Of a stretch of 60,933 nt of DNA, positions 7,654 to 29,057 are shown piece after piece. The position numbers were made by a program, and so were the translations under genes. The DNA is taken from contig CALFSX010000321.1 of NCBI GenBank assembly GCA_937916515.1, forward strand, positions 1 to 60,933, written 5' to 3'. Each line of letters starts with the position of its first letter. Within the stretch, counting starts at the first letter, position 1. This DNA is from an uncultured Planctomycetaceae bacterium. GTDB taxonomy: Bacteria > Planctomycetota > Planctomycetia > Planctomycetales > Planctomycetaceae. Below the pieces are notes generated by a model, which was not told the origin of the DNA, ran no database searches, and was given only the letters and a program-made list of their open reading frames with translations.

Positions 7654-8415
7654 TTATCCCAGATGGTTTCTGGGCATGGCGGATTGAGGGTTGCGGATGT
7701 ATTTGCCGAACGCGTTGATGACGTTGGCGTACATCACGAAGACGACCAATCCATAGATCATGGCAAAAACCATGAACAAAAGAACGCCGATGTTTGTGAA
7801 TGCCATACCGCGTTGTCCACCAACGAAACTCGGTGCGAAACCGCCGAAAACTGCAACGACAGCAATGATCGCTCCAACGATCAGCAGTATTAGAACTCGA
7901 CGAGCGCGTCTGGTCATATCCGGTCGTTGCATGTAAGTTCCCAGCTTTTGCAAAAACACCATAAGCAGCACGGTTGCGATTGCCGGAATCACCAATGTGA
8001 ACATCCAGTTAGCTCCCAGCCCCCCGGCAATAAATCTGCCAAAGTAGACGAATGCAACGCTGACAGCCTGAATCGCTGCACTGACGACAATCCACGCTTT
8101 GGCGCCGGATTCAGAGGGGACGGTTGTGCAAAGAAATCTGCCGACCAGCGACATCACGCCAACAAGAATGCCAAAAATTCCGAAAGCCAAAATGAAGTTT
8201 CCGAATACCAACGCGCCTGCTCCACGGCTCGCAAGTATGCCGAATCCGGCTCCAGCAAATCCCAGCAGCACCTGCAACAGGATTGCCACGTAGATCATGG
8301 TCAGCCCTGTTCCTGTCATCTTCAGGCTCGCAAAGTCAACCCCTGAGTTTTCATCATAAGGCAGCACAACGTCACCTTTAACGGTCGGTGCTGCAAACGG
8401 GTTATGTTCGTTCAT
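7654..8415 (-). CDS. Multi-pass membrane protein, planctomycete NPFAAP type
   Basis: 253 residues from MNEHNPFAAP (ATG at 8415); an upstream in-frame ATG would add 28 polar residues that look non-coding. The start motif NPFAAPTVKGD resembles the NPYAPP-like opening of many planctomycete membrane proteins. About six hydrophobic segments follow, for example MIYVAILLQVLLGFAGAGFGIL, LVFGNFILAFGIFGILVG and IGVLLFMVFAMIYGLVVFVMY (each quoted in part). The C-terminus is short and cytoplasmic-looking. No catalytic motif is seen and I do not recognise a function. It is convergent with clpB. Confidence 0.75.
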   Translation of the reverse strand: MNEHNPFAAPTVKGDVVLPYDENSGVDFASLKMTGTGLTMIYVAILLQVLLGFAGAGFGILASRGAGALVFGNFILAFGIFGILVGVMSLVGRFLCTTVPSESGAKAWIVVSAAIQAVSVAFVYFGRFIAGGLGANWMFTLVIPAIATVLLMVFLQKLGTYMQRPDMTRRARRVLILLIVGAIIAVVAVFGGFAPSFVGGQRGMAFTNIGVLLFMVFAMIYGLVVFVMYANVINAFGKYIRNPQSAMPRNHLG

Positions 8416-8822
8416 TCTGCATCTGCCTGTTTGAGTGCCGAAAGCTGAATTGCCGGGGGACGTTGGAAAATTCCGCTCGTACTGGTGGATCTGTCCCACT
8501 ACTGCGTCTTTTAGGCCCTCGGTGATTGGTTTTCAAACGTCAGGTGCGATCAGATCCGATTTCGGCACGTGAGACTGTGACGTTCAGGGGCATTCGTTGT
8601 GGTTTGAACGGCTGCTAGGAATTGTGTTCGCTTTTGGGCAAAGGCCTTCCCCGCAGGACTTGTCTTTCACAATCATCGCTGAACGCGACTGTTGGATTCA
8701 GTCTCAACGCCTGCCGTGCAAGTTCGCCTAAAGTGTGAAAATGCTCGCTAAAACGGTCTGCCCAGTTCGATTATTCGAGGTAACCGGGGTGTCGATTTGA
8801 ATTGTTGGTCGCGGATTCTAAC
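8416..8822. other. Divergent intergenic region, nothing distinct seen
   Basis: About 400 bases between the membrane protein and aldehyde dehydrogenase genes. It must hold promoters for both, but I see no clear promoter pair, dyad or conserved RNA. Confidence 0.6.
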
Positions 8823-10313
8823 ATGTCTCAAACAAATTCATTTCTTCACACCTCATCAAGAATCCCGCCTGAACTCATGATTGAAATTCCCGTAATTCGC
8901 TGGGGTAAGCCATACGAATCGCTCGAAAAAGCGGACGTCGTTCACTTCGAAACCGGTGAAGTGATGGCTCGAATGCATCAGGCCAACGCTGGGCTGGTGA
9001 AAATGGACATGCGCAAGTCTGCGAACGCTCGCGAAGCCTTGCGCAAATTTACGCCTCAACAACTGATTGAAATGTGCGTCAAGGCGGCTGACCTGTTTTT
9101 GACCGCAGAATTGCCGCTCGGCACGGGTACTCAAACTCCCGACCAGTTTTGCGAAATTCAATCGGCCACCACCGGCTTACCGTTAAACATGGCCAAAGGG
9201 AACATGGGCAAGATTGCCTTTGTTCTGAAAAATATGGGAGCAACTCTGGATGCTCTGACGCGAGGTCTTCCGCTGGATATCCTTCATAAAGGGTATGGCA
9301 TGGAATCGCGAGGCGTGATGGTCAGCTATCAGGCTACAACGGATACTCTGGGTTTGGTACTGCCTTCTAATTCGCCGGGCGTACACACACTGTGGTTGCC
9401 CGCGATTCCGTTGCAGGTCGGGCTGGTTTTGAAACCGGGGTCTTCTGAACCGTGGACTCCGTATCGAATGTTCGAAGCCTTCGTGGCCGCCGGTGTGCCT
9501 CGCGAAGCGTTCTGCTTGTATCCGGGGCCTCACGAAGTCGGAAACGCAGTTCTGGAAAAGTGCGAGCGAGCGATGATTTTTGGAGGCACGGCGACCGTCG
9601 AAAAGTATGCTGGCGATTCACGCGTGCAGGCTCACGGGCCAGGTTTCAGCAAGATTATTCTGGGCGACGACGTTGTCGATCGTTGGGAAGATTATCTGGA
9701 CCTGATGGTGAAAAGCGTACTGGTTAACGGCGGACGCAGCTGTATTAACTGTTCTGGCATCTGGGCGTCTCGACACACGGAAGAAATCGCAGAAGCCATT
9801 GCCAAACAACTGGGGCCGGTTGAAGCACTGCCTTCAACGGACGAAAACGCGGCTTTGGCGGCCTTCACCATGGAAGGCGCGGCAGAAGCGATGAATAACA
9901 TGATTGAGGAAGGCTGTAAGTCTTCTGCCGTAACAGAAGTATCAGCCAAATATCGCAATGGCGATCGCCTGATCAAAAAAGAACGCTGCGACTATCTGCG
10001 ACCAACTGTCCTGCATGTAAGTGATGTCGACGATCCAATGGCAAACACCGAATTTATGTTTCCATTTGTTTCGGTAACGAAGTGTCCTCAGGACAAAATG
10101 ATAAAAAAAATCGGCAGCACATTGGTGTGTACCGCCATTACGGAAGACGAAGCCTTCAGTGCCGATTTAGTGATCGCTCGAAACATCGACCGCCTGAATA
10201 TTGGAGCCGTGCCGACGTTCGCGTTGAACTGGCTGCAACCTCACGAAGGCAACATCATTGACTTCCTGTATCGCAACCGAGCATTCCAGAAAAGCATGCC
10301 TCCTGCACACTAA
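8823..10313 (+). CDS. Aldehyde dehydrogenase superfamily protein, possibly CoA-acylating
   Basis: About 496 residues from the ATG at 8823; a TTG seven codons upstream is the alternative. Likely NAD(P)-dependent oxidoreductase acting on an aldehyde or acyl-CoA. Seen: LGLVLPSNSPGVHTLWLPAI and KPGSSEPWTPYRMFEAF for the Rossmann part, FGGTATVEKYA for dinucleotide binding, and NGGRSCINCSG with the presumed catalytic cysteine (about 307). The general-base motif ELGG is replaced by HGPGFSKIIL, so the glutamate typical of hydrolytic aldehyde dehydrogenases is missing. CoA-acylating members lack it too, which suggests an acyl-CoA reductase-like reaction (inference). Single gene closed by a strong terminator. 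Confidence 0.85.
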   Translation: MSQTNSFLHTSSRIPPELMIEIPVIRWGKPYESLEKADVVHFETGEVMARMHQANAGLVKMDMRKSANAREALRKFTPQQLIEMCVKAADLFLTAELPLGTGTQTPDQFCEIQSATTGLPLNMAKGNMGKIAFVLKNMGATLDALTRGLPLDILHKGYGMESRGVMVSYQATTDTLGLVLPSNSPGVHTLWLPAIPLQVGLVLKPGSSEPWTPYRMFEAFVAAGVPREAFCLYPGPHEVGNAVLEKCERAMIFGGTATVEKYAGDSRVQAHGPGFSKIILGDDVVDRWEDYLDLMVKSVLVNGGRSCINCSGIWASRHTEEIAEAIAKQLGPVEALPSTDENAALAAFTMEGAAEAMNNMIEEGCKSSAVTEVSAKYRNGDRLIKKERCDYLRPTVLHVSDVDDPMANTEFMFPFVSVTKCPQDKMIKKIGSTLVCTAITEDEAFSADLVIARNIDRLNIGAVPTFALNWLQPHEGNIIDFLYRNRAFQKSMPPAH

Positions 10314-15293: not shown

Positions 15294-16319
15294 ATGGCAT
15301 CTTCGAGTCTCGACTGCGACGACTGGCAACCAACGTGTTCGCTGGAAATGCTGAAATTTCGCGCTGCCGCGTTGGCGGCGGCGCGATCGTTTTTTGCACA
15401 ACTAGGCTACATGGAAGTGGAAACACCATTGATGTCTCACGACATTGTGGTTGATGCTCACCTGGAACCATTTGAAATCCCGTCATCCGACGAACGGCTG
15501 TTTCTGCAAACCAGCCCGGAAGCTGGCATGAAGCGACTTCTGGCAGCTGGCAGCGGTTCTATCTTTCAGGTCACTCGCTCATTTCGGCGTCATGAATCCG
15601 GATCGAAACACAATCCGGAATTCACAATGCTGGAATGGTATGGAGTCGGCACAACCTGGCAGGATCAGGTTCTGTTAACGGAAAAACTGGTTCGCTGCAT
15701 TCAGGCGGCAATCAAAACGGCAGGTGCCGCAGCAATGGAATTTGCAGAACCGCACTTCAACCGTATTGCTTACGACAAGGCATTTCTAAGGACGCTGAAT
15801 CAGTCTGTGTTGGAATTGCCAGTCAAACAACTTCGTTGTTTGACCGCATCACACACAAGCTTTGCTGATAGCGATTGCCAGGCACTCGATCGCGACGAAT
15901 TGCTGAACATACTGCTTGCCGAATGCGTTGAACCGGTTCTGGGAACCGAACACCCGGAATTCCTGTACGACTATCCCGCATCTCAGGCAGCGTTGGCACA
16001 GCTAAATCCAGGTGACCATCGCAGTGACCATCGCACGGCGTGCCGCTTTGAACTGTATTGCAATGGGCTGGAACTGTGTAACGGCTATCAGGAACTCACA
16101 GATCCGGCCGAATTGAAAGCTCGCGACCAGCAACAAAACACAACTCGCACGCGGCAATCGGCAGACGCTTTGCCAGGTGCCACCCGCATGCTGGCCGCGA
16201 TGAACCACGGTCTTCCCGCCTGTTCCGGTGTCGCGTTGGGCTTCGACCGACTGCTGATGTGCCTGCTGCAGGAAACCGAAATCCGCCGAGTCATCCCCTT
16301 CCCCATCGACCGCGCCTAG
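15294..16319 (+). CDS. epmA: EF-P beta-lysylation enzyme EpmA (PoxA/GenX type)
   Basis: 341 residues, homologous to the catalytic core of class II lysyl-tRNA synthetase without the anticodon-binding domain. It attaches lysine to a conserved lysine of elongation factor P. Seen: FRAAALAAARSFFAQLGYME with ETPLMS (motif 1), RSFRRHESGSKHNPEFTMLE (motif 2), ELYCNGLELCNGYQELTDP, and GVALGFDRLLMCLL (motif 3). No efp or epmB lies in the window. The TAG stop is followed at once by repeat A (CAGGGGCTTCGCCCTT), so the repeat sets the gene end. Confidence 0.92.
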   Translation: MASSSLDCDDWQPTCSLEMLKFRAAALAAARSFFAQLGYMEVETPLMSHDIVVDAHLEPFEIPSSDERLFLQTSPEAGMKRLLAAGSGSIFQVTRSFRRHESGSKHNPEFTMLEWYGVGTTWQDQVLLTEKLVRCIQAAIKTAGAAAMEFAEPHFNRIAYDKAFLRTLNQSVLELPVKQLRCLTASHTSFADSDCQALDRDELLNILLAECVEPVLGTEHPEFLYDYPASQAALAQLNPGDHRSDHRTACRFELYCNGLELCNGYQELTDPAELKARDQQQNTTRTRQSADALPGATRMLAAMNHGLPACSGVALGFDRLLMCLLQETEIRRVIPFPIDRA

Positions 16320-16679: not shown

Positions 16680-17312
16680 GTGGAACAGTTCATCGAAAAC
16701 TGCTTCGCATGGCCCACGTGGCCGGCAACCATGCTGCTTTTGTGCGTTTGCGGCTATTGGTTGATGATGATGTTGGGAGCCGTTGATCTGGATTTTCTGG
16801 ATATTGATCTGGATCTCGACATGGATATGGAACTGGATGCAGACCCATCAATTCTGCAGTTTGGATTTATCCCCTTAAAGTTTTTAAACATCGGCAGCGT
16901 GCCAACCATGTTGTGGGTGAGCGTATTTTCGCTCACAGGGTGGATGGTTTCGCGACTGTGGAACAGTCCGTTGCCGCACGAATCGTTTTTGTGGAAGGCA
17001 GACACAATTGCCATTATTCGCGACTTTGGAATTGCTGCGTTAATGACCAAAGCGATCACTCAACCGTTAAGAGGTCGCTTTGATCCCGTGCAGCCGAATA
17101 TGCCGGCGCAACTTGTCGGTCGAGTTTGTGTGGTCACCACAACAGAAGTCTCCGACACATTCGGTGAAGCAGATCTACAAACCGACGCCGCTCCCTTAAA
17201 ACTGAAAATTCGAAACAACGAAGGCAACATCACCAAAGGCGACCATGTTGTGATTGTGGATTTCAGAAGCGAAGACAATATCTACTTTGTGCGCAGGTCG
17301 GAAGTGGTGTGA
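16680..17312 (+). CDS. OB-fold membrane protein, YqiJ/NfeD-like (flotillin partner)
   Basis: 210 residues, GTG start with GAAGGAAG six bases upstream. Hydrophobic segments lie near the N-terminus (PATMLLLCVCGYWLMMMLGA) and about residues 73-95 (VPTMLWVSVFSLTGWMVSRL). Between them is an Asp-rich stretch alternating with Leu and Met (LDFLDIDLDLDMDMELDADP). The C-terminal 70 residues form an OB-like domain (MPAQLVGRVCVVTTTEVSDT; KGDHVVIVDFRSEDNIYFVR). In E. coli yqiJ lies beside the flotillin gene yqiK, and NfeD proteins also pair with SPFH proteins. Here the flotillin-like gene begins 92 bases downstream. Family assignment is by resemblance. Confidence 0.8.
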   Translation: MEQFIENCFAWPTWPATMLLLCVCGYWLMMMLGAVDLDFLDIDLDLDMDMELDADPSILQFGFIPLKFLNIGSVPTMLWVSVFSLTGWMVSRLWNSPLPHESFLWKADTIAIIRDFGIAALMTKAITQPLRGRFDPVQPNMPAQLVGRVCVVTTTEVSDTFGEADLQTDAAPLKLKIRNNEGNITKGDHVVIVDFRSEDNIYFVRRSEVV

Positions 17313-17404
17313 TATCTCTCACCTGTGACATCAAGGTGAAGTGTCGCGCTGATTGAATTATTCAAATACAAAATTGACATCGAAAATAATTGGAGCCTAT
17401 CCTC

Positions 17405-19441
17405 ATGACAATCCCTGTTCTACTTGCCAACACCACAGAAAACGTGATGGTGTTTGGCGCCAGCGCAGTTGTGCTGCTGATCTTTTTGATCGGCATGGCG
17501 ACCGCCTTCTCGAAGTTCTATCGCAAACCTGGGCCGGAAGAGGCCATTGTTAGAACCGGTGTCGGCGGTCTTCAGGTGATCACTGGCCGAGGCATGGTGG
17601 TGGTTCCGTTAATTCAGGAAGCCCACGTGATGGACCTGTCGCTGAAGCGAATTCTGATCGCTCGCGATGGCGAAGATGGCTTGATCTGTCAGGACAATAT
17701 GCGAGCCGACATTAAGGTGACGTTCTTCGTTCGAGTCAACAATCAGGCCAGCGACATCAAGACGGTTGCTGAAACGATCGGCCCTAAGCGAGCGTCAACT
17801 CAGGACAAGCTGGAAGAACTGTTCGAAGCCAAGTTTTCTGAAGCATTGAAGACGGTCGGCAAGAACTTCGAATTTGTTCAGCTGTACACAGAACGCGACC
17901 AGTTCAAAGAGCAAATCCTGAAGGTTATCGGTACCGACCTGAACGGCTATGTGCTTGACGACTGTGCCATTGACTACCTGGAACAGACTCCGCTGGACCG
18001 TTTGAGCCCGACCAACATTCTTGACGCTGAAGGTATCAAGAAAATCACCGAACTAACGGCTGCTGAAAAAGTGAAGGAAAACTTCTTCACTCGCGAAAAA
18101 GAAAAGACGCTGAAAAAGCAGGACGTGGAAGCTCAGGAAGCCATTCTGGAACTGGAAAAGCAACGCGTCGAAGCGGTCGAAAAGCAAAATCGAGAAATCG
18201 CGGCCATCAAATCACGTGAGCAGGCCGAGGCTGCTCGGATTCAGTCGGAAGAGCTGCTGAAAGCCGAAACTGCTCGAATCCGAACCGAAGAAGAATTACA
18301 GGTTCAGGAAGAAAACAAACAACGGCAAGTGCTGGTTGCTCAGCGTAACAAAGAACGTACTGACGCTGTCGAGCAGGAACGAGTTACTCGAGATCGCGAA
18401 CTTGAAGTCACTGACCGGACTCGCGTGGTCGGACTGGCTGAGATCGAAAAAGAAAAAGTGATCGAAGTTGAGCGAAAGAATATTCAGGACGTCATTCGAG
18501 AACGAGTAACCGTCGAGCGAGCGGTTGTTGAAGAAAAGGAAAAGATCAAAAACACCGAAGCCTTCATGGAAGCTGACCGTCAGAAGCAGGTTGCCGTGAC
18601 GTTGGCCGAAAAGTCTGCCGAAGAAGCGATGGTGAAGCAGGTCAAGGCAGCCGAAGCTTCCAAAGCTGCAGCGTCGTTGCACGCTGATCAGGTCATTGTC
18701 GAAGCGGAAGCCAAACGGGCGGCCGCTGAAAAAGAAACCGAAGCCACCAAGATGCTGGCCGGAGCCAAGGCTGCCGACCACGCCGCTGTGGGGCTGGCAG
18801 AAGCCGAAGTGATGACCGCAAAAGCCGAAGCCACCGAAAAGACGGGTACGGCAGAAGCTCACGTGATGCAGATGAAGTTCACCGCCGAAGCCACCGGTAT
18901 TCAGGAAAAGGCCGAAGCGATGAAACTGTTCGACAGTGTCGGACGCGAACACGAAGAATTCAAGCTGCGACTGAACAAAGAAAAAGACATCGAAATCGCT
19001 GCCATTCAGACTCAGCAGTACATTGCTGAAGCTCAGGCCGGAATCGTTGGCGAAGCCTTGAAGACAGCTCGAATCGACATCGTCGGTGGCGAAAGCACGT
19101 TCTTCGAGCAGATCGTTAGTTCTGTCAAGGCTGGCAAGGCGGTTGATCGATTCGTCCACAACAGCGAAACGATTACCGATATCAAACAGACGTTCTTCAA
19201 CGGCGATCCCGAATACTTCCGCAACAAGCTGACTCAGTTTGCCGGACAATTCAACATGAGCTTTGAAGACGTCAAGGATCTGTCGGTTGTTGCGTTGATA
19301 GGCAAAATGCTGACGCTGGCGAAGACCGACGAATCGCAGTCGGAACTGACTCGCATGTTGGACACCGTGGCAGGTTCGTCCATGGCGGGCAAAAAGATCG
19401 GAGCCCTTGTAAGCGGACTTCCCGCGAAAAAGGACGCGTAA
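17405..19441 (+). CDS. Flotillin-like SPFH/band 7 membrane scaffold protein
   Basis: 678 residues from MTIPVLLANT; TTGGAG lies nine bases before this ATG, and a TTG five codons upstream is the alternative. One membrane helix (about 16-38, VVLLIFLIGMATAFSKFY). SPFH domain about 45-230 (GPEEAIVRTGVGGLQVITGR; DIKVTFFVRVNNQASDIKTV). A long Glu/Ala/Lys coiled coil runs from about 230 to 545, and ends in the Ala-Glu repeats typical of flotillins (AEAEVMTAKAEATEKTG). A C-terminal region of about 110 residues follows (ETITDIKQTFFNGDPEYFRN; QFAGQFNMSFEDVKDLSVVA). It probably oligomerises on the inner membrane and organises partners such as the neighbouring OB protein and AAA+ ATPase. Confidence 0.92.
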   Translation: MTIPVLLANTTENVMVFGASAVVLLIFLIGMATAFSKFYRKPGPEEAIVRTGVGGLQVITGRGMVVVPLIQEAHVMDLSLKRILIARDGEDGLICQDNMRADIKVTFFVRVNNQASDIKTVAETIGPKRASTQDKLEELFEAKFSEALKTVGKNFEFVQLYTERDQFKEQILKVIGTDLNGYVLDDCAIDYLEQTPLDRLSPTNILDAEGIKKITELTAAEKVKENFFTREKEKTLKKQDVEAQEAILELEKQRVEAVEKQNREIAAIKSREQAEAARIQSEELLKAETARIRTEEELQVQEENKQRQVLVAQRNKERTDAVEQERVTRDRELEVTDRTRVVGLAEIEKEKVIEVERKNIQDVIRERVTVERAVVEEKEKIKNTEAFMEADRQKQVAVTLAEKSAEEAMVKQVKAAEASKAAASLHADQVIVEAEAKRAAAEKETEATKMLAGAKAADHAAVGLAEAEVMTAKAEATEKTGTAEAHVMQMKFTAEATGIQEKAEAMKLFDSVGREHEEFKLRLNKEKDIEIAAIQTQQYIAEAQAGIVGEALKTARIDIVGGESTFFEQIVSSVKAGKAVDRFVHNSETITDIKQTFFNGDPEYFRNKLTQFAGQFNMSFEDVKDLSVVALIGKMLTLAKTDESQSELTRMLDTVAGSSMAGKKIGALVSGLPAKKDA

Positions 19442-19463
19442 CCAGCAGGCCACGTCTCAGAAC

Positions 19464-19492
19464 ACAGCCTGACACAAGCGGTGTCAGGCTGT
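19464..19492 (+). terminator. Stem-loop between flotillin and AAA+ genes
   Basis: ACAGCCTGACAC (19464-19475), loop AAGCG, GTGTCAGGCTGT (19481-19492), perfect 12-bp stem, then TATCTGTTTCG. The T-rich tail is weak, so partial termination (lower expression of the large downstream gene) is as likely as a full stop. Confidence 0.65.
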
Positions 19493-19546
19493 TATCTGTT
19501 TCGCCCTACCAGCATTTTCTGACCAACGGCCCTTCAAGCTTTCACT

Positions 19547-22500
19547 GTGTCTATGTCTGAAATCGCCAACAACTCCGCTAACGCAACTGTTCCCGACGTG
19601 GGGCTGGAAAGCGGTACGTATGAAATCATTCGCAGCAGATTGCAGGCGAGTGGAAAAGTACTTAGATCGAAGCTGGAACAACTGAATGATGCTCGCAAGG
19701 AAGTGTTCGGTTCGATCGACACAGCGTTGCTCAGCACAGAACGTATTACCACAGATCACAACTGTATCGCTCGCGACATGGTGGCGATCGGTAACCGATT
19801 GATTCTGGGCTACAACGTCCACTTCGGATTGAAGTCTGAAACCGACGTCAGCGACGTATTTGCGGTTTACAGTTTCAACGAAACTGACAAAACTCTTTCC
19901 TCTGTTCAGCCCTTTTCTACGATTCTAAGTGCCGAAACGGCTCAGGCATCGCCCTTTGCGAATATCGCCGTCTCAAAGTTTCCAACGCCGACTTCCGGCG
20001 CAGCCTCGTTATCTGGCGCAACAGCGTCATCCGCCGGAGCTTCCGGAAGTCCCGGATTTGAACGAGACTTCAAGGATTTGTTTCGTTACTACAAGAACGC
20101 CGTGTTTGCGAAGTTTTCAATTCGCGGGCCGCACTTGTTTATGGTGTTTCGAGTCGGCAAATCCGTCACCGAAATCAAGACCTTCAAGTGGCTGATCGAT
20201 CGCAGTGGTGGCAGCGGTCAGGTCTTTCTAAGATACGTTGATAACCGCAGCGACCACGAATTTCGCTTTCCGCCTCAACATGATTTCGAATGGATTCGGA
20301 CAACTCGCGATGATCATCGTTATGGGGGCCACCCGCATATTTCGATTAAAGATCGCGTGTTTGTGGAAACTGTTGGCGGCGATCTGACGATCAAGATCGA
20401 AAACAACACCGACAGCGGTGAAGGCATCTATGCAGAACCCGTCGATGATCGCGATCAGACACTGGACGATGGCGAAATCTATTACGCGATCGTCGGCAAT
20501 ATCATTCTGCTGAAGATGCGTCCGTATCAGGAAAAGCAGTTTCGCTATATCGTTTACAACGAAAAGCTGCAGACAGCGATGCGGCTGGATACGATCAAAG
20601 ATGCGTGTGTGCTTTTGCCAGACGATCACGGCCTGATCTTTCCAAATGGGTATTACCTGCAGGATGGCGAATACAAGACGTTCGATCACAGCCTGACGGA
20701 TATGCTGTTCGAACGAACAGTGATCGCTCCCAACGGAGAAGACTATCTTTACGTCTTCTACAATCGTGATTCGGGCACGTACGTACTTCTGCACTACAAT
20801 TTGATTGAGCAAACCGTTGAGACTCCGTTGATTTCCAATGGTTCAACGTTTCTGGAAGCCGGAGAACTGCTGTGCTTCAAATCGCAGGGTGACGTTCAGA
20901 AACATCACATGGTCCAGCTTTGGCAAACGCCATACGTTGGAGAAGACTTTGTTCCGCATGTGGTGGGCGATTCGTTTCTGAATAAGATCGGCAACAAAGA
21001 CATCGTGCGAGCGATGGCGGAGTGTCATGAAATTTTGAAATTGATCGGCAAGGAAGATTCCTATGCCAACCTCTACACAGACCTGGCCAGACAGTGCGGA
21101 GACATTACTGATTCGTACTTCTGGCTAACCAGAGACGATACCTTCAACCTCGCAGCTGCACTTGCCGACATCAGAGCGGCCGCCAGTGCGGCTGTTGATG
21201 AGTTCGATAAAGTTGTTCGAGTTCGCAAGAACACAGCCGACGAAACCCGGACGACTCAGAATCGTACAAAAGAAATTCTTGGCAAGGTTAGAAATCGTCG
21301 TTTCGAACACATCAACGATTTCGTCAGTTCGCTAAGCGACCTTCGCACAGTTCGCGGGCACATTATTTCGTTGAAGGATCTGCGCTACGTTGATTTGACG
21401 TTGACGGAAAGTCTGGAAAAAGAGGTTGCTGAAAACACCGAACGCCTGAGTCTCAAGTGTGTGCAATTCTTGTTGAAACCGGAGTCGCTGGCGCCATATC
21501 AACAGAAAGTCCGCGACGAACAGGCCGGAATTGAACATCTTGCGAAGGTCTCAGACGCCCGGGCACTCGAAGAAGACATCGCAAAGAGTGCTTCCGAACT
21601 GGAAATGCTGATTGAGATCGTCAGCAACTTGAAAATCGACGATGCGACTCATCGCACGGCAATTATCGACAATATCTCCGCAATCTTTTCCACGGTAAAT
21701 CAGGCGCGAGCCATCCTGAAAAAGAAGATTCGTGAGCTGGCTTCTGTGGAAGGAGTCGCGGAATTCAATTCGCAGATGAAGCTGCTGAATCAGGCAGTCG
21801 TCAACTATCTGGACATTTGCGACGCACCAGAAAAGTGCGAAGAGTTTCTTACGAAGATGATGATCCAGTTGGAAGAACTGGAAGGCCGCTTCGCGGAGTT
21901 TGACGAATTCATCGTTCAGCTGACAGACAAGCGCGAAGAAGTTTATAACGCGTTTGAAAATCGCAAGCTGGCTCTGGTGGAAGCCAGAAACAAGCGAGCG
22001 AACTCGCTGATGAATGCCGCCGAACGAGTGCTGAAGGGCATTCAGTCGCGAGTTCAAAGTTTCGAGACAGTTAACGACATCAACGGCTATTTCGCGTCCG
22101 ATCTGATGATCGAAAAGGTGCGAGACATTGTTGTCAGGCTGAAAAAACTGGACGACAGCGTAAAGGTCGACGACATCCAGAGCCGTCTGAAGACGATTCG
22201 CGAAGATGCTGTACGACAGTTGAAGGACCGCAAGGAACTGTTTGTCGACGGCGAAAACACTATTCGCCTTGGCACCCATTTGTTCTCCGTCAACACGCAG
22301 GCACTCGATCTGACAACAGTGCTGCGAAATGACCAGTTGTGCCTGCATTTGACCGGCACGAACTTCTTCGAGCCCATTCGTAACGACCGTTCGCTTTCGA
22401 CGAAGGATGTCTGGGATCAGGAAGTTGTTTCAGAAAATCGCTCTGTATATCGGGGTGAATATCTGGCGTGGAAACTCATTCACGAAGCAGTACGGCTAAA

Positions 22501-25147
22501 AAAGGTTCCTGACACCGGTTTTGGTCTGGCGGATGTTCAGAAGTTTATGGGCCCGCGGTACGGAGAAGCTTACACGAAGGGTGTGCACGATGTTGATGCG
22601 GCGAATATCGGTAAAGCTGTCTTCGAAATGCAACAGACGATTGGTCTGCTGAAGTTCGATTCTCAGTCGCGTGCTTTGGGGCTGTTGTATTGGCAGATCT
22701 TCGCTGACAAGAAGACCAAAACAGGCGTGGCGGCAAGAATGTCGGGTGCTGGAGCGATCTCGGCGGCTTTCTCACACCTGTCAGGCCGCGATGCATATGT
22801 GTCCGAGTTACTTGAGCTGTTAAACGGATTCATCGATTCACCGTTGGCCCCGTCCACAATCCGACAGGAACTAACGACCAATCAACGGCAGTCTGCGGCG
22901 GAATACCTGTTCTGTGAATTGTCCGGAACTGCAGCGTTCGCCATCAGCAGCGTTGCCAGCGAACTCATTGGCAGCTTTCGAAAACACCTGAACTCCAAAG
23001 GCTTCACGGAAGCGTTTCAAAAATCTGTGGCGGCAGTGGAAAAGGACAAAGCCAGCTGCTTTGTTCTTCTGCGAAATTGGGTGCACGCGTTTCTGTCTGT
23101 CGACAAACAGACAAGCTTGATTGAATATGCAGACGAAGTTGCCGTTGCTTTAATGCCGGCGTGGGCAGGCGATAAGGCTGTCATTGCTGGCAAAGTGGCT
23201 GCAGATCTGTCTGGCATCGTTGGCACTCACGGTGTCATCGATGGCGGCAACTATCACCTGAACTACAACCATTTCATGCAGCGGTTGTCTGACTTCGAAG
23301 CGACGGCTGTCCCGAAATTCAACGATTATGTTGCCTTGAAGCATGAAGTCGTGGAGCACGCTCGAGAAGAAATGCGGCTTGATGAGTTCCGTCCTCGAGT
23401 ACTCACTTCGTTTGTACGTAACAGGCTGCTGAACGAAGTTTACCTGCCGCTTATAGGAGACAATCTTGCCAAGCAAATTGGTGCCGCGGGCGAAGGTAAA
23501 CGCACCGACTTGATGGGGCTGTTGCTGCTGGTATCGCCGCCGGGGTACGGCAAGACAACGTTGATGGAATACATCGCCAATCGCCTGGGATTGATCTTCA
23601 TGAAGATCAACGGTCCGGCGCTGGGCCATCATGTTACTTCACTGGATCCATCGGAAGCCACCAACGCCGGAGCTCGAGAAGAAGTTGAGAAGTTGAATCT
23701 TGCTCTGGAAATGGGCGACAACGTCATGATCTACGTGGACGACATCCAGCATACAAGTCCCGAATTCCTGCAGAAGTTCATATCGTTATGTGATGCTCAG
23801 CGCAAGATCGAAGGCGTCTACAAAGGGAAGACTCGAACTTACGACCTGCGAGGCCGCAAAGTGGCGGTGGTGATGGCCGGAAATCCATACACCGAAAGCG
23901 GCGAAAAGTTTCAAATTCCGGACATGCTTTCCAACCGTGCCGACATCTACAACCTTGGCGAGATCATCGGTGATTCCAGCGAAGCGTTTGAAACCAGTTA
24001 TCTGGAGAATGCTTTGACGTCGAATCCGGCGCTGGCAAAACTTTCCAGTCGCAGCCAGCAGGATGTCTATTCGATTATCAAGATGGCAAACAACGAGCCA
24101 CGAGACGGCATCGAACTGGAAGGCAACTATTCGCTGGAAGAAATCAACGAACTTGTCGTAACCATGCAGAAACTGATGCGGGTTCGCGATGTCATTCTGA
24201 CGGTCAATAAAGAATATATTCGCTCGGCCGCTCAAAGCGACGATTACCGCACCGAACCGGCGTTCAAGCTTCAGGGTTCGTATCGAAACATGAATCGCAT
24301 TGCCGAGAAGGTTCTGCCAATCATGAACGACGACGAGCTCACGACGTTGATCGTTTCAAACTACGAAAATGATGCTCAAACCCTGACATCCGGCACAGAA
24401 GCGAACCTGTTAAAATTCAAGGAACTCACTGGCCTGCTGACGGCCGTTGAAGCCGAACGCTGGGAAGATATTAAGCGAACGTTCCGTCAGAACGTGAAGC
24501 TGAAGGGCTTTAGCAGTGATGACAAGACCGGACAGGTCATCGCGACTTTGGGGAATCTCAGCGACGGCCTGGAAGCAATTCGCAAGGCCTTGAATTCCGG
24601 CGTTACACAGTGGGCTGATCATAAAGCAACGGTGCCCGAACCAGTTGTCGCTCAGGTCGAGGATTCACAATCGCAGCAAACAGCCGCTGAATTGGCCGCT
24701 AAAACAGCCATGATGGAAGCCATCGCGAAAGAATTGTCCGGTCTGAAGTCCGGCCTGGCAGAAATCAATCTGTCGTTGTCGGACGGCCTTCAGCAGCTTA
24801 AAGATAGTAGTCCTGCCGCAGGTGAACGTCATCACGAACAAAGTCCAGTCGCTAAAGTTCGAAACGTCAGCAGCGCTGAAGAGGCGGCGGCTGAGAACGA
24901 AAGTTCTGTTGACGCAGGTGAAAGTGAGGGAGTGTCCAGTCCCTATCGAATCACGGTCGTGAACAAAATTCCGCCAACTCTGGTGTCCGTGCTGAAGCAG
25001 CAGTTCAAGCTCATGAATGCCTGGATGCAGCCAATTCACAAAGCGACTCAGGCACAGCGAGCTGACAACAAGAAACTGTTAGCTCACCTGGAAGAATGCG
25101 CTGACCTGTATGTGAAGCTGATTGAGCGCATTGAAGGCCGGAAATAA
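19547..25147 (+). CDS. Giant coiled-coil AAA+ ATPase (annotated elsewhere as DNA repair ATPase)
   Basis: 1866 residues. About 1-470 are beta-rich and repetitive in feel (for example FRYIVYNEKLQTAMRLDTIK, DGEYKTFDHSLTDMLFERTV). About 520-900 is mostly long helices. The AAA+ core shows Walker A PPGYGKTT (1331-1338), Walker B VMIYVDD (1393-1399, Asp1398-Asp1399), a sensor-like MAGNP (1443-1447) and a possible arginine finger in LSNRAD (Arg1464). The last 270 residues are again helical. From memory, similar proteins are called DNA repair ATPase or DUF3686; I could not verify this, and see no DNA-binding motif. Same strand and 105 bases after the flotillin gene, suggesting a shared complex at the membrane. 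Confidence 0.88.
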   Translation: MSMSEIANNSANATVPDVGLESGTYEIIRSRLQASGKVLRSKLEQLNDARKEVFGSIDTALLSTERITTDHNCIARDMVAIGNRLILGYNVHFGLKSETDVSDVFAVYSFNETDKTLSSVQPFSTILSAETAQASPFANIAVSKFPTPTSGAASLSGATASSAGASGSPGFERDFKDLFRYYKNAVFAKFSIRGPHLFMVFRVGKSVTEIKTFKWLIDRSGGSGQVFLRYVDNRSDHEFRFPPQHDFEWIRTTRDDHRYGGHPHISIKDRVFVETVGGDLTIKIENNTDSGEGIYAEPVDDRDQTLDDGEIYYAIVGNIILLKMRPYQEKQFRYIVYNEKLQTAMRLDTIKDACVLLPDDHGLIFPNGYYLQDGEYKTFDHSLTDMLFERTVIAPNGEDYLYVFYNRDSGTYVLLHYNLIEQTVETPLISNGSTFLEAGELLCFKSQGDVQKHHMVQLWQTPYVGEDFVPHVVGDSFLNKIGNKDIVRAMAECHEILKLIGKEDSYANLYTDLARQCGDITDSYFWLTRDDTFNLAAALADIRAAASAAVDEFDKVVRVRKNTADETRTTQNRTKEILGKVRNRRFEHINDFVSSLSDLRTVRGHIISLKDLRYVDLTLTESLEKEVAENTERLSLKCVQFLLKPESLAPYQQKVRDEQAGIEHLAKVSDARALEEDIAKSASELEMLIEIVSNLKIDDATHRTAIIDNISAIFSTVNQARAILKKKIRELASVEGVAEFNSQMKLLNQAVVNYLDICDAPEKCEEFLTKMMIQLEELEGRFAEFDEFIVQLTDKREEVYNAFENRKLALVEARNKRANSLMNAAERVLKGIQSRVQSFETVNDINGYFASDLMIEKVRDIVVRLKKLDDSVKVDDIQSRLKTIREDAVRQLKDRKELFVDGENTIRLGTHLFSVNTQALDLTTVLRNDQLCLHLTGTNFFEPIRNDRSLSTKDVWDQEVVSENRSVYRGEYLAWKLIHEAVRLKKVPDTGFGLADVQKFMGPRYGEAYTKGVHDVDAANIGKAVFEMQQTIGLLKFDSQSRALGLLYWQIFADKKTKTGVAARMSGAGAISAAFSHLSGRDAYVSELLELLNGFIDSPLAPSTIRQELTTNQRQSAAEYLFCELSGTAAFAISSVASELIGSFRKHLNSKGFTEAFQKSVAAVEKDKASCFVLLRNWVHAFLSVDKQTSLIEYADEVAVALMPAWAGDKAVIAGKVAADLSGIVGTHGVIDGGNYHLNYNHFMQRLSDFEATAVPKFNDYVALKHEVVEHAREEMRLDEFRPRVLTSFVRNRLLNEVYLPLIGDNLAKQIGAAGEGKRTDLMGLLLLVSPPGYGKTTLMEYIANRLGLIFMKINGPALGHHVTSLDPSEATNAGAREEVEKLNLALEMGDNVMIYVDDIQHTSPEFLQKFISLCDAQRKIEGVYKGKTRTYDLRGRKVAVVMAGNPYTESGEKFQIPDMLSNRADIYNLGEIIGDSSEAFETSYLENALTSNPALAKLSSRSQQDVYSIIKMANNEPRDGIELEGNYSLEEINELVVTMQKLMRVRDVILTVNKEYIRSAAQSDDYRTEPAFKLQGSYRNMNRIAEKVLPIMNDDELTTLIVSNYENDAQTLTSGTEANLLKFKELTGLLTAVEAERWEDIKRTFRQNVKLKGFSSDDKTGQVIATLGNLSDGLEAIRKALNSGVTQWADHKATVPEPVVAQVEDSQSQQTAAELAAKTAMMEAIAKELSGLKSGLAEINLSLSDGLQQLKDSSPAAGERHHEQSPVAKVRNVSSAEEAAAENESSVDAGESEGVSSPYRITVVNKIPPTLVSVLKQQFKLMNAWMQPIHKATQAQRADNKKLLAHLEECADLYVKLIERIEGRK

Positions 25148-26828: not shown

Positions 26829-27335
26829 TTATTGCGGCTCGCGAATTGGGGCGAACTTGATCTTTTTGATGTAGCGAACCATCTTGCCGTCGACCATTTT
26901 TCCGGAACACGCACTGATGGCTGAAATGATATTTTTGTACTGCAGACCGTAGTCGGGATCGATCTCGACTTCCTGTTTGTCCAGATTGCTGGGACCAGCA
27001 GCGTTTAAGGCATTGACGGATTTCAGAATCTCAGAATTCAACCTCAGAAAGGCCTGCGGCCCGGAACCCAGAGGTTGGCTGTTGTAACTCAACATGGCCA
27101 ATTCGCCGGTGTCTGGATCTGCCTGCATGCGTACTTTGAAAGGTGGCAGATCTGCGTTATCCATAGACGATTGCTGAGGTGCTCCCAGTGGCATGTTAAT
27201 GTCGAAGTCGCCTTCCGGTTCGACAATCTTCAATGTCAGCATGAAGAAAATCAGCAGCTGAAACACAACGTCGATCATCGGCGCCATTTGTGTTTCAATT
27301 TTGTCGCCGCCCGAATGTCGTGCTCGAATTTTCAT
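26829..27335 (-). CDS. ExbD/TolR family biopolymer transport protein (second copy)
   Basis: 168 residues. N-terminal cytoplasmic stub, one membrane helix containing the proton-carrying Asp (MAPMIDVVFQLLIFFMLTLK), then a periplasmic domain (PEGDFDINMPLG; VEIDPDYGLQYKNIISAISA). ExbD-type proteins convert the proton gradient into motion together with ExbB/TolQ pentamers. This copy is 253 bases from the other exbD-like gene, with a palindromic repeat between. Its periplasmic part is more divergent, so the two probably form a heteromeric pair or serve different partners. Confidence 0.88.
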   Translation of the reverse strand: MKIRARHSGGDKIETQMAPMIDVVFQLLIFFMLTLKIVEPEGDFDINMPLGAPQQSSMDNADLPPFKVRMQADPDTGELAMLSYNSQPLGSGPQAFLRLNSEILKSVNALNAAGPSNLDKQEVEIDPDYGLQYKNIISAISACSGKMVDGKMVRYIKKIKFAPIREPQ

Positions 27336-27510
27336 TGCTTGAAACCTGTATTTCCGGAAAACGCGATGCCGTTTTCTTCTGGCTCTATCATCTGCGTCTG
27401 AGTGCAGATGTTGAAATATCGAAAACCGTCCTGTTGTGGTTCATTCCGTGCTCAGAAGCCTGAGCCATCGAGTGCGGTCACTCGGCCACGGATAATCATG
27501 GTTTGTGGTA

Positions 27511-27560
27511 GTGGATCTTGTTAAAGATCCCTGTGTGGCCCAATCTTTAACAAGATCCAC
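27511..27560. repeat. GTGGATCTTGTTAAAGATCC repeat, inverted pair
   Basis: GTGGATCTTGTTAAAGAT (27511-27528) is perfectly inverted at 27543-27560 after 14 bases. Each arm can also fold on itself. The same unit is at 25208. It lies between the two exbD-like genes and could reduce expression of the downstream one. Confidence 0.88.
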
Positions 27561-27588
27561 GACCCTGAAACTAAACCGTGACAAAACA

Positions 27589-28065
27589 TTAGTCTCTGTT
27601 CTGAGTTGCCTTCAACGCAAATCGCTGGAAGCCAATGCCATCTTCCTGACACAATTGAATGAGCTTCTGAACCATGCCCGAAGGCACTCCCGCATCAGCT
27701 CGAATTTCAACTGTGACATCTTTTAGATCAGTTCCAATCGTCTTATAGAACTGAGCCTCTGATCGCAGCTTCAAGCCGCTTTCTTCAACGGTGAATCGCT
27801 CGCCGCTGAAAAAGATGTACGGATTCGGATCAATCTTTTCGCCCAGCTTATTCTTTTCGTAGCCGAAGTTCAGCGTCAAAGAATTCTCTCGCTTTACTTC
27901 CGGCGGTTTTGCCAGTTGATCGCGAGGAAGTGTGACACGTTCGTCGGCCTGTTGTTGCTCAAAGTTTGTGATCACCATAAAGAAGGCAATCAGCTGAAAC
28001 ACGATGTCAATCATCGGCGTCATATCGACATCGGGTGGCCCGCTTCCGGAAGACTTAATTTTCAT
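27589..28065 (-). CDS. ExbD/TolR family biopolymer transport protein (first copy)
   Basis: 158 residues. Start MKIKSSGSGPPDVDMTPMID, then a single helix with the functional Asp (MTPMIDIVFQLIAFFMVITN), then a periplasmic domain (ERVTLPRDQLAKPPE; DVTVEIRADAGVPSGMVQKL). It acts with the ExbB/TolQ-like protein encoded 140 bases upstream to form a proton-driven motor. The target is probably the envelope machine that includes the two TPR proteins (inference from gene order). Confidence 0.92.
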   Translation of the reverse strand: MKIKSSGSGPPDVDMTPMIDIVFQLIAFFMVITNFEQQQADERVTLPRDQLAKPPEVKRENSLTLNFGYEKNKLGEKIDPNPYIFFSGERFTVEESGLKLRSEAQFYKTIGTDLKDVTVEIRADAGVPSGMVQKLIQLCQEDGIGFQRFALKATQNRD

Positions 28066-28205
28066 GAGCGTTTTACTCCGTTGAAAAGATCAGCAGCTTG
28101 TCGGCGGTGAATTCGTTGCCCCAAATTCACCGCCGAAACAAACGTGTCGATGCGACAGGACTAAGCAGACGATTTACCACCGGAACCAGTGAAGACCACT
28201 TGGGA

Positions 28206-29057
28206 TTATGTTCCGGCAGGCTTTGTGCCACCCTTGCCAACGGCCGCAAAACGGCTCATCAAACCTTCGCTGACCATGCCGATTTCCAGCACCAGTCGCT
28301 GAATTCGGTTCTTCAGAATGCTATAGAACACCATGGCGGGAATTGCGATTCCCAGACCAATCAACGTGGTAAACAGAGCAGTGGAAATACCTTCCGCCAG
28401 TTCGCTGGGTTTCGGAGAAACAGCTGAGGATGCAATCTTGTCGAACGACGCGATCATACCCTGAACCGTTCCCATCAGCCCCAGCATCGGTGCGACGCTG
28501 CCGATGAGAGCCAGATAGCTGAGTCGATGTTCCAGAGCCATGTTTTCATCTTCGCCAGCTTCCTGCATGCCTTCCACGGCTTCCGGATAGCCTCGGCTAA
28601 GTCGTCCCATGCCAGCCGCCAGAACTCGAGCAACAAACGAATCGTCGTTGCGAGCGATTTCGTAGGCTCCCTGAAAATCCTTACCGTTCAGCTTTTGTTC
28701 GAACTCTTCCACAAAGTCGTTCGGCAGCAGCACGTCACGGCGAACCTGCAGCAGGTTCATCATAATTAACGCCACCATCACAAATGACAATGCGGCGAAT
28801 ACCAGCATCCAGAACCAGCCCAGAGCATCGATCATCCATGTGAGAAAGTTGCGGCTTTTTACGGGGGCATCAGCGGCGCCGCCGGCGGCGGCATCGGCTG
28901 CAGGTGCATCAGCGACAGCACCTTCGTCCTGTGCCTGAGCTACCGAAGTCGTACCAGCCAGTGGAAAGGTGGCAAGGGCGATTGTGATAGACAACAGCAA
29001 CACACCCCAACTGCGGAGGGATCGGTGCCTTGCGACTTTTTCTGAAAGGCTAAGCAT
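28206..29057 (-). CDS. MotA/TolQ/ExbB family proton channel protein
   Basis: 283 residues. Signal-like N-terminus (WGVLLLSITIALATFPLAG) and an Ala-rich linker, then three further hydrophobic segments; the extra N-terminal part is common in planctomycete and other gram-negative ExbB relatives. The core shows WFWMLVFAALSFVMVALIMM, LAGMGRLSRG-like cytoplasmic helices (AAGMGRLSRGYPEAVEGMQE), YLALIGSVAPMLGLMGTVQG and ISTALFTTLIGLGIAIPAMV. GAGA-type ribosome site about eight bases before the ATG. Forms the pentameric stator with the two ExbD-like proteins encoded downstream. Confidence 0.94.
   Translation of the reverse strand: MLSLSEKVARHRSLRSWGVLLLSITIALATFPLAGTTSVAQAQDEGAVADAPAADAAAGGAADAPVKSRNFLTWMIDALGWFWMLVFAALSFVMVALIMMNLLQVRRDVLLPNDFVEEFEQKLNGKDFQGAYEIARNDDSFVARVLAAGMGRLSRGYPEAVEGMQEAGEDENMALEHRLSYLALIGSVAPMLGLMGTVQGMIASFDKIASSAVSPKPSELAEGISTALFTTLIGLGIAIPAMVFYSILKNRIQRLVLEIGMVSEGLMSRFAAVGKGGTKPAGT

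What the first reader, a model, noticed from the sequence alone, without database searches (positions are those of the whole stretch)
16680..25147. OB-fold protein, flotillin and giant AAA+ ATPase encoded as one set
Seen: three genes on one strand with gaps of 92 and 105 bases encode an OB/YqiJ-like membrane protein, a flotillin-like SPFH protein and an 1866-residue coiled-coil AAA+ protein. Known: SPFH proteins recruit AAA+ machines (HflKC with FtsH) and flotillins pair with NfeD/YqiJ proteins. Inference: the AAA+ protein is the working part of a membrane-scaffolded machine, for example for membrane stress or remodelling. This is my main candidate for a little-described system.
Basis: partly seen in the sequence, partly recalled or inferred. 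Interest (0 to 1): 0.75.

Follow-up and report, generated by a model that had tools for sequence, protein, structure and literature searches.

The report
Membrane scaffold with giant AAA+ motor
Three neighbouring bacterial genes, found together in many phyla, encode a membrane anchor, a scaffold protein and a giant motor protein that very probably work as one uncharacterised machine at the cell membrane; the grouping was already noted once in print, but I found no experimental test of it.

Summary
In detail: YqiJ-like (16680-17312), SPFH (17390/17405-19441) and an 1866-aa AAA+ protein (19547-25147) lie on one strand. The AAA+ protein is Pfam DUF3686, "DNA repair ATPase" in RefSeq relatives. 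An SPFH gene lies within 3 kb upstream in 113 of 116 testable loci, over eight or nine phyla; the three exceptions keep the pair divergently or elsewhere in the genome. The SPFH subtype is present in 39 of 39 AAA+-bearing planctomycete genomes (294 sampled) and 6 of 6 Bacteroidota (198 sampled).

The set is not unknown: Ravi et al. 2024 (PMC11237479) described it as a PspA/CesT-Tir-associated operon and as "abbreviated operons". New here: AAA+-coupled SPFHs lack Pfam's flotillin domain (0 of 11 scanned) and carry their own stalk and C-terminus, absent from six AAA+-less YqiJ-SPFH pairs examined; the AAA+ core resembles MoxR/MCM/RuvB and has an invariant Asp-Asp Walker B; PspA is rarely in the operon outside Bacteroidota; hairpins are enriched between the SPFH and AAA+ genes.

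Most likely it is an SPFH-scaffolded, non-proteolytic AAA+ remodeller at the membrane. Function and complex formation are inferred, not shown.

The parts
16680..17312 (+). YqiJ-like (NfeD2-type) small membrane protein, 210 aa
   Evidence: ORF; YqiJ_N sub-threshold; homologous gene upstream of the AAA+ in 102 of 109 testable loci; one hydrophobic segment, residues 14-37, at the threshold used
17390..19441 (+). SPFH-domain membrane scaffold protein of the AAA+-coupled subtype (TTG 17390 or ATG 17405)
   Evidence: ORF; Band_7 48.2 bits; SPFH-subtype profile 344.8 bits; hydrophobic segment residues 15-45
17492..18034 (+). SPFH domain (residues 35-215), shared with the AAA+-less YqiJ-linked SPFH proteins examined
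   Evidence: conservation; profile
18590..19438 (+). second coiled coil and C-terminal region (residues 401-683) specific to AAA+-coupled SPFHs; candidate AAA+ docking part
   Evidence: planctomycete-trained profile finds it in 55 of 55 non-planctomycete trio SPFHs, not in 6 of 6 AAA+-less SPFHs examined nor in E. coli YqiK; Flot absent
19464..19492 (+). 12-bp-stem hairpin between SPFH and AAA+ genes; candidate partial terminator or mRNA-stabilising element
   Evidence: no other copy with up to 3 mismatches in the 8.33-Mb genome; SPFH-AAA+ gaps enriched for hairpins
19547..25147 (+). DUF3686-family AAA+ protein, 1866 aa (relatives are 'DNA repair ATPase' in RefSeq)
19724..20926 (+). N-terminal beta-propeller (about residues 60-460, in DUF3686)
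   Evidence: AlphaFold2 model pLDDT 86; Foldseek to beta-propellers including clathrin N-terminal domain
20975..22240 (+). long helical / coiled-coil middle (residues 477-898, includes DUF7902)
   Evidence: Pfam
23399..24526 (+). AAA+ core (about residues 1285-1660): Walker A 1330-1337, Walker B 1393-1399 (DD), hairpin 1420-1433 before sensor-1 N1446, R1464, R1580
   Evidence: model pLDDT 91, Foldseek; G1335, K1336, T1337, D1398, D1399, N1446, R1464 in 102 of 102 rows, R1580 in 101; motif names recalled
24587..25144 (+). poorly conserved C-terminal tail of the AAA+ protein (residues 1681-1866)

Best explanation
The trio is one machine. YqiJ and the SPFH protein form an oligomeric scaffold on the inner membrane, probably a cage as in other SPFH complexes. 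The large soluble AAA+ protein assembles as a ring (probably a hexamer) and is recruited to the scaffold through the SPFH's own stalk and C-terminal region. Its beta-propeller and helical arm bind a client, and the ATPase core remodels or disassembles that client at the membrane without proteolysis. In Bacteroidota and a few other operons the client may include PspA; elsewhere another envelope complex. A hairpin between the SPFH and AAA+ genes would help make many scaffold subunits per motor. Shown: gene linkage, co-occurrence, largely shared inheritance, domain anatomy (predicted), and the matching SPFH subtype. Inferred: physical complex, ring assembly, docking site, client, stress role and the role of the hairpin.
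For: SPFH same-strand within 3 kb upstream in 38/38, 11/11 and 64/67 testable loci; the three exceptions keep the pair elsewhere (L105, L109) or divergently (L145). Two-way presence/absence: 39 AAA+ genomes of 294 all have the SPFH subtype, and the two SPFH-only genomes are cut by contig ends 36 and 245 bases after the SPFH gene; 6 and the same 6 of 198 Bacteroidota. Flanks mostly not kept. AAA+ and SPFH distances correlate inside phyla, r 0.90-0.93, and 59 of 99 tree splits are shared. AAA+-specific SPFH stalk and C-terminus. AAA+ core highly conserved, fold near MoxR/MCM/RuvB/Lon. No hydrophobic segment in the AAA+ protein, one in the SPFH protein. Hairpin enrichment.
Against: No interaction, expression or phenotype data. 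Gene linkage does not prove binding. The Walker B position where Glu is usual (recalled) is Asp in 102 of 102, so ATP turnover is not assured. 15 of 78 well-supported AAA+ tree splits conflict with the SPFH tree. Two AAA+ genes are not next to the SPFH gene (L105, L109). In some loci other genes or transposases lie between the SPFH and AAA+ genes, so tight co-transcription is not universal.
Confidence: 0.6

Rival explanations
1. A bacterial Vps4-like machine: the AAA+ protein's dedicated client is PspA (bacterial ESCRT-III), and the trio recycles PspA polymers at the membrane.
For: PspA upstream of the trio in 21 of 28 testable Bacteroidota loci and in the same run of genes on pQBR103, CesT/Tir in 20 of 27 Bacteroidota loci; PspA in 28 of 39 AAA+ against 48 of 255 other planctomycete genomes; PMC11237479.
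Against: PspA upstream in only 2 of 51 testable planctomycete loci and 0 of 13 verrucomicrobial, 0 of 3 Bacillota, 0 of 3 actinomycete loci; 9 of 39 AAA+ genomes have no PF04012 hit, one of them 98% complete. AAA+-less SPFH genes also lie beside PspA (G041, G145, G044). No MIT domain found. The window genome has another PspA next to a separate AAA protein.
Confidence: 0.2
2. A mobile stress-tolerance or phage-defence module.
For: Patchy: 39 of 294 and 6 of 198 genomes; on 12 plasmid-collection records, some of them chromosome-sized; flanks mostly not conserved.
Against: Only a weak PADLOC hit (mad8, E 0.00058, to the ATPase core); no match in the phage collection and none confirmed of 15 candidates in viral contigs; five window neighbours scanned with Pfam show no defence family.
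Confidence: 0.1
3. A DNA-repair ATPase, as Pfam and RefSeq label it.
For: Pfam and RefSeq names. In the six annotated regions seen the one further label of that kind is a LexA-family regulator near the Hymenobacter operon.
Against: Constant membrane-scaffold partner; the RuvB resemblance is confined to the AAA+ core and is shared with MoxR, Lon and MCM. Repair genes in the neighbourhoods were not searched for systematically.
Confidence: 0.03
4. The genes are co-inherited and co-regulated but the proteins do not form one complex.
For: No direct interaction data.
Against: An SPFH stalk and C-terminus seen only where the AAA+ exists (6 AAA+-less proteins and YqiK as contrast); the SPFH subtype stays with the AAA+ even where the genes are apart.
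Confidence: 0.07

Closest known systems
CesT/Tir-PspA + band-7 + YqiJ + 'novel AAA+ ATPase' operons and their 'abbreviated operons' (Ravi et al. 2024, PMC11237479)
   Same: Same three genes, same domain architecture (beta-propeller, coiled coil, AAA+)
   Different: The window lacks the CesT/Tir-PspA dyad; the AAA+-coupled SPFHs scanned here have no Pfam Flot domain, although the paper writes 'band-7 + coiled coil + flotillin'; the section read gives no obligate pairing and no AAA+-specific SPFH subtype
HflK/HflC-FtsH
   Same: SPFH membrane assembly with an AAA+ protein
   Different: FtsH is membrane-anchored and proteolytic (recalled); here no hydrophobic segment and no peptidase family matched, different AAA+ clade
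E. coli YqiJ-YqiK / B. subtilis YuaF-FloT (SPFH2-NfeD2 pairs)
   Same: YqiJ-SPFH gene pair
   Different: No AAA+ beside YqiK, DUF3686 absent from both genomes; YqiK has the flotillin C-terminal domain in place of the stalk and C-terminus found here (FloT not tested)
MoxR-type AAA+ chaperones (NorQ, CbbQ)
   Same: AAA+ core fold with hairpin before sensor 1
   Different: Giant N-terminal propeller and coiled coil, SPFH partner, no helix-2 insert seen in the model, DD Walker B

Membership tests
DUF3686 (PF12458) AAA+ family | DUF3686, DUF7902 and AAA domains over cut-off in the window protein | tested here: met
   16 of 16 aligned members hit all three at E 0.01 or better
PspA-associated band-7/YqiJ/AAA+ operon (Ravi et al.), abbreviated form | adjacent YqiJ, band-7 and propeller-coil-AAA+ genes | tested here: met
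   YqiJ family hit sub-threshold for the window protein
PspA-associated band-7/YqiJ/AAA+ operon (Ravi et al.), full form | CesT/Tir-PspA dyad in the operon | tested here: not met
   none found in the window with my profiles; three PspA genes elsewhere in the genome
YqiJ / NfeD2 small membrane protein | OB-fold C-terminal domain | tested here: inconclusive
   no OB family hit in the window protein; among 12 relatives YqiJ_OB hits 1 and NfeD 3
Flotillin (SPFH + Flot domain) | Pfam Flot C-terminal domain | tested here: not met
   no hit in the window SPFH nor in the other trio SPFHs scanned, 0 of 11; positive controls YqiK and 4 of 6 AAA+-less SPFHs
SPFH/Band 7 superfamily | Band_7 domain over cut-off | tested here: met
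   48.2 bits against cut-off 23.6 in a genome search; hmmscan of the whole protein gave none and only 4 of 12 SPFHs, YqiK included, hit it that way
HflKC-FtsH-type SPFH-AAA+ protease | peptidase domain and membrane anchor in the AAA+ protein | tested here: not met
   no peptidase family, no hydrophobic segment
MoxR AAA+ | hairpin before sensor 1 | tested here: met
   strands 1420-1425 and 1428-1433 before 1439-1445 in the model; feature recalled
MoxR AAA+ | helix-2 insert | tested here: inconclusive
   no strands between 1356 and 1392 in the model; feature recalled
MoxR AAA+ | VWA-domain partner gene | not tested
   no search of the neighbourhoods for VWA; partner recalled from memory
Vps4 | MIT domain | tested here: not met
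   no such Pfam hit
Known anti-phage defence systems (PADLOC) | specific model hit | tested here: not met
   only mad8 at E 0.00058 over the ATPase core

The most novel reading that the evidence does not exclude
A further kind of SPFH-AAA+ machine besides the protease-type ones (HflKC-FtsH, prohibitin with its AAA protease; recalled): an SPFH cage whose flotillin domain is replaced by an adapter for a megadalton, soluble, MoxR-like ring with a client-reading propeller, so that the cage holds a non-proteolytic remodelling chamber on the inner membrane of bacteria from eight or nine phyla, usually independent of PspA, with subunit ratio tuned by a hairpin between the genes.
Probability: 0.25. 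Interest if true: 0.78.

Novelty: new variant of a known kind. Interest (0 to 1): 0.56.

Why it matters
SPFH cages are known structurally but what most of them hold or serve is unclear. Here a giant AAA+ motor is tied to one SPFH subtype with what looks like its own adapter, which makes the question of what an SPFH assembly works with directly testable. It also argues that the RefSeq label 'DNA repair ATPase' may mislead. DUF3686 is absent from the 14 control genomes, E. coli and B. subtilis included, which may be why my searches found no experimental study.

Tried and rejected
Considered and rejected: (a) chance neighbours: flanks vary, trio kept. (b) The L089 AAA+ 'fusion' of 3320 aa: a run of N, an artefact. 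(c) Genes between SPFH and AAA+ in some loci as a fourth component: few have homologues in other loci; two scanned are a Y1/IS200-like transposase and an AbiEii-type protein. (d) The window hairpin as a repeated genomic element: no second copy. (e) My first PspA profile, made of two sequences, missed L055 and L039; redone. (f) Viral or phage origin: nothing found. Not possible: complex prediction (single chains only), VIA-align.

Rows dropped and limits: 13 of 80 genome-contig loci lack 2.5 kb upstream and were left out of the adjacency count. The genome-contig scan kept the best 80 of at least 573, so it leans to near relatives. Hairpin statistics use 74 of 130 loci, with gaps of 40-320 bases and no N; the control is 150 of 230 gaps between roughly called ORFs, with a slightly different shuffle for the z-score; the like-for-like measure within one search is the hairpin score. 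The trio set for conservation and trees is 102 of 130 loci; the blocks for the planctomycete-trained profiles were cut from an alignment of all 102. Structure alignments: 74 of 75 eligible rows (L089 dropped) and 75 of 78 (L100, L146, L154 dropped). Only 6 of the 24 weaker SPFH genes (14, 10) were examined. 11 of 12 plasmid-collection records were fetched. L045 and L046 are 98% identical. The own genome (planctomycetes) and G297 (Bacteroidota) were the centres of their samples and bear the trio by choice.
Full report
WHAT IS THERE. Three genes follow each other on the + strand: 16680-17312 (210 aa), 17390 or 17405-19441 (683 or 678 aa) and 19547-25147 (1866 aa). The last is Pfam DUF3686 + DUF7902 + AAA. 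RefSeq calls relatives 'DNA repair ATPase' and one YqiJ-like neighbour 'DUF1449 family protein'. The YqiJ label of the window protein rests on a sub-threshold YqiJ_N hit and on its homologues; an OB fold was not shown.

IS IT ONE UNIT? In nine loci of the same family (20-kb stretches) the trio is always present, while of ten flanking genes of the window nine are found in 0 of 9 and the kinase in 1 of 9; in 50 other planctomycete loci the kinase has a homologue in 9 and the tRNA-synthetase-like gene in 1. In 38 other planctomycete genomes, 11 plasmid-collection records and 80 genome contigs, an SPFH gene lies on the same strand within 3 kb upstream of the AAA+ in 38 of 38, 11 of 11 and 64 of 67 loci with room (13 of 80 had none); the YqiJ-like gene in 35 of 35, 10 of 11 and 57 of 63. 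By group, window included: Planctomycetota 55/55, Bacteroidota 27/29, Verrucomicrobiota 16/16, Gammaproteobacteria 5/5, Bacillota 3/3, Actinomycetota 3/3, Desulfobacterota 2/3, Deinococcota 2/2, Kiritimatiellota 1/1; the one 'Chlorobi' locus had no room. Exceptions: L145 has the pair divergently beside the AAA+; L105 and L109 have a YqiJ-SPFH pair of the right subtype elsewhere in the genome. The SPFH gene is within 300 bases in 88 of the 116; in the rest the gap is larger, in some with inserted ORFs.

TWO-WAY TEST. A profile of the SPFH domain from 18 trios (A4) was run over the same 294 planctomycete genomes as DUF3686. All 39 DUF3686 genomes (the window's own among them) have a match of 287 bits or more; only two others do (G221, G252), and their contigs end 36 and 245 bases after the SPFH gene; the next match is 181 bits. 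Fisher p is about 1e-46, with species treated as independent, which they are not. In 198 Bacteroidota, 6 have DUF3686 (one is G297, around which the sample was drawn) and the same 6 have the SPFH at 343 bits or more; the next is 228 bits. AAA+ and SPFH distances correlate at r 0.93, 0.90 and 0.92 within Planctomycetota, Bacteroidota and Verrucomicrobiota; 59 of 99 tree splits are shared (0 or 1 in 20 label shuffles), although 15 of 78 well-supported AAA+ splits conflict with the SPFH tree.

A DEDICATED SPFH SUBTYPE. Six of the 24 weaker SPFH genes (130-228 bits) were inspected: YqiJ-like gene adjacent in 6 of 6, AAA+ near in 0 of 6, and none of those six genomes has DUF3686. Profiles trained only on planctomycete trios find the second coiled coil (residues 401-545) and the C-terminal region (546-683) in 55 of 55 non-planctomycete trio SPFHs (minimum 54.9 and 16.8 bits), but not in the six AAA+-less SPFHs (at most -11.5 and 4.8 bits) nor in E. 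coli YqiK (-7.2 and -0.8). Conversely, Pfam's flotillin domain is in YqiK and 4 of the 6 AAA+-less proteins but in 0 of 11 trio SPFHs. So, where the AAA+ exists, the end of the SPFH protein is different and conserved: the best candidate for a docking part. In the flotillin cage the C-terminus stabilises oligomerisation (PMC11260169, passages), so the region may instead serve assembly.

THE AAA+ PROTEIN. AlphaFold2 models from window plus fetched relatives: residues 1-930, pLDDT 86, pTM 0.67, a beta-propeller (about 60-460) followed by long helices; residues 885-1690, pLDDT 91, helical domain and AAA+ core. Foldseek: the first half matches beta-propeller proteins, clathrin heavy chain first, and long helical proteins, all with low TM-scores; the core matches MCM, MoxR (CbbQ, NorQ; best target TM 0.63 in the rows shown), RuvB and Lon. 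A hairpin lies before sensor 1 (1420-1433). The Walker A residues G1335, K1336 and T1337, N1446 and R1464 are invariant in 102 of 102 rows, R1580 in 101 of 102; Walker B ends in Asp-Asp in 102 of 102, where Glu is usual ('usual' and motif names are recalled). No hydrophobic segment and no peptidase family.

PspA. PspA precedes the trio in 21 of 28 testable Bacteroidota loci, in 1 of 5 Gammaproteobacteria (pQBR103, with five genes between), in 2 of 51 Planctomycetota, and in none of the other groups tested; CesT/Tir in 20 of 27 Bacteroidota. In three planctomycete loci (L055, L092, L126) a PspA gene also lies downstream. PspA is enriched in AAA+ genomes (28 of 39 against 48 of 255 over cut-off; 18 of 29 against 41 of 248 without the window's own family), but 9 of 39 have no hit and 2 only a sub-threshold one; G111, without a hit, is 98% complete. 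So PspA is a frequent, not obligate, companion. Relatedness and genome size may explain part of the enrichment.

HAIRPIN. A 12-bp-stem hairpin (19464-19492) stands between the SPFH and AAA+ genes and has no second copy in the genome. Gaps between SPFH and AAA+ fold better than shuffles (z -2 or lower) in 50 of 74 loci, against 7 of 29 YqiJ-SPFH gaps and 45 of 150 control gaps (p 1.4e-7); the best hairpin beats all 20 shuffles in 41 of 74 against 38 of 150 (p 1.4e-5). Only 15 of 74 have five or more T in the next ten bases, so few look like full terminators. SPFH cages hold 24 (HflKC) or 44 (flotillin) subunits (PMC11260169, passages), a motor ring probably six: a hairpin that lowers or protects one side of the message would fit. 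This is inference. A Y1/IS200-like transposase sits in this gap in L073 (Pfam), with homologues in L070 and L122, so some gap hairpins elsewhere may be mobile palindromes.

WHAT IS KNOWN. Ravi et al. 2024 (PMC11237479; [quoted passage not shown] That is this system. The SPFH2-NfeD2 pairing is in PMC2636767 (passages). PspA beside band-7 genes is also in PMC9239133 (passages). In PMC13086221 (passages) the P. aeruginosa SPFH loci named carry NfeD, rtc and other genes; the word ATPase does not occur in it. PMC10936438 (passages) links SPFH proteins to ESCRT. Searches for DUF3686 and for PF12458, DUF7902 and PF25472 found no paper using those names; in the rows listed (5 of 5; 12 of 199) none holds 'DNA repair ATPase'. 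The library holds open-licence papers only, so experimental work may exist elsewhere.

VERDICT. Real, widespread, one functional set; not a first discovery. The new parts are the two-way pairing, the AAA+-specific SPFH end without the flotillin domain, the loose tie to PspA, the DD Walker B and the hairpin. The mechanism given is the most economical one and is untested.

Noticed in passing
L171:6837-7577 and 7674-9473 (own genome, contig C81): A PspA-family gene followed by a 600-aa protein with an AAA domain, a separate PspA-AAA pair in the same genome; it may be the PspA-linked AAA+ protein mentioned in PMC11237479.
   Followed up: partly
L055:4618-6093: Two PspA-like genes directly upstream of a planctomycete trio and a third downstream.
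   Followed up: partly
AAA+ residues 1398-1399 (window 23738-23743): Walker B Asp-Asp, where Asp-Glu is usual, in all 102 relatives aligned; unexplained.
   Followed up: no
L070, L073, L122, L102 (gap between SPFH and AAA+): Insertions in the gap: Y1/IS200-like transposase (L073, homologues in L070 and L122) and an AbiEii-type protein (L102).
   Followed up: partly
window 15294-16319: A class II tRNA-synthetase-like protein (tRNA-synt_2), EpmA-like by recall, just upstream; a homologue in only 1 of 59 other planctomycete loci.
   Followed up: no
window 26829-29057: Two ExbD/TolR-like genes and one TolQ/ExbB-like gene on the minus strand; names by recall from the sequence, no family search done.
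   Followed up: no
L077 (pQBR103): The trio on a plasmid directly after a YjfI-PspA-rhomboid-DUF2491-DUF350-DUF1190-glutathionylspermidine synthase run of genes, joining two operon types that PMC11237479 lists separately.
   Followed up: no
L142:5190-5567, L152:9546-9920, L154:2287-2661: Three verrucomicrobial loci share a homologous gene of about 125 aa between SPFH and AAA+; not identified.
   Followed up: no
L089:9923-19885: Apparent 3320-aa AAA+ ORF is an N-run artefact.
   Followed up: yes
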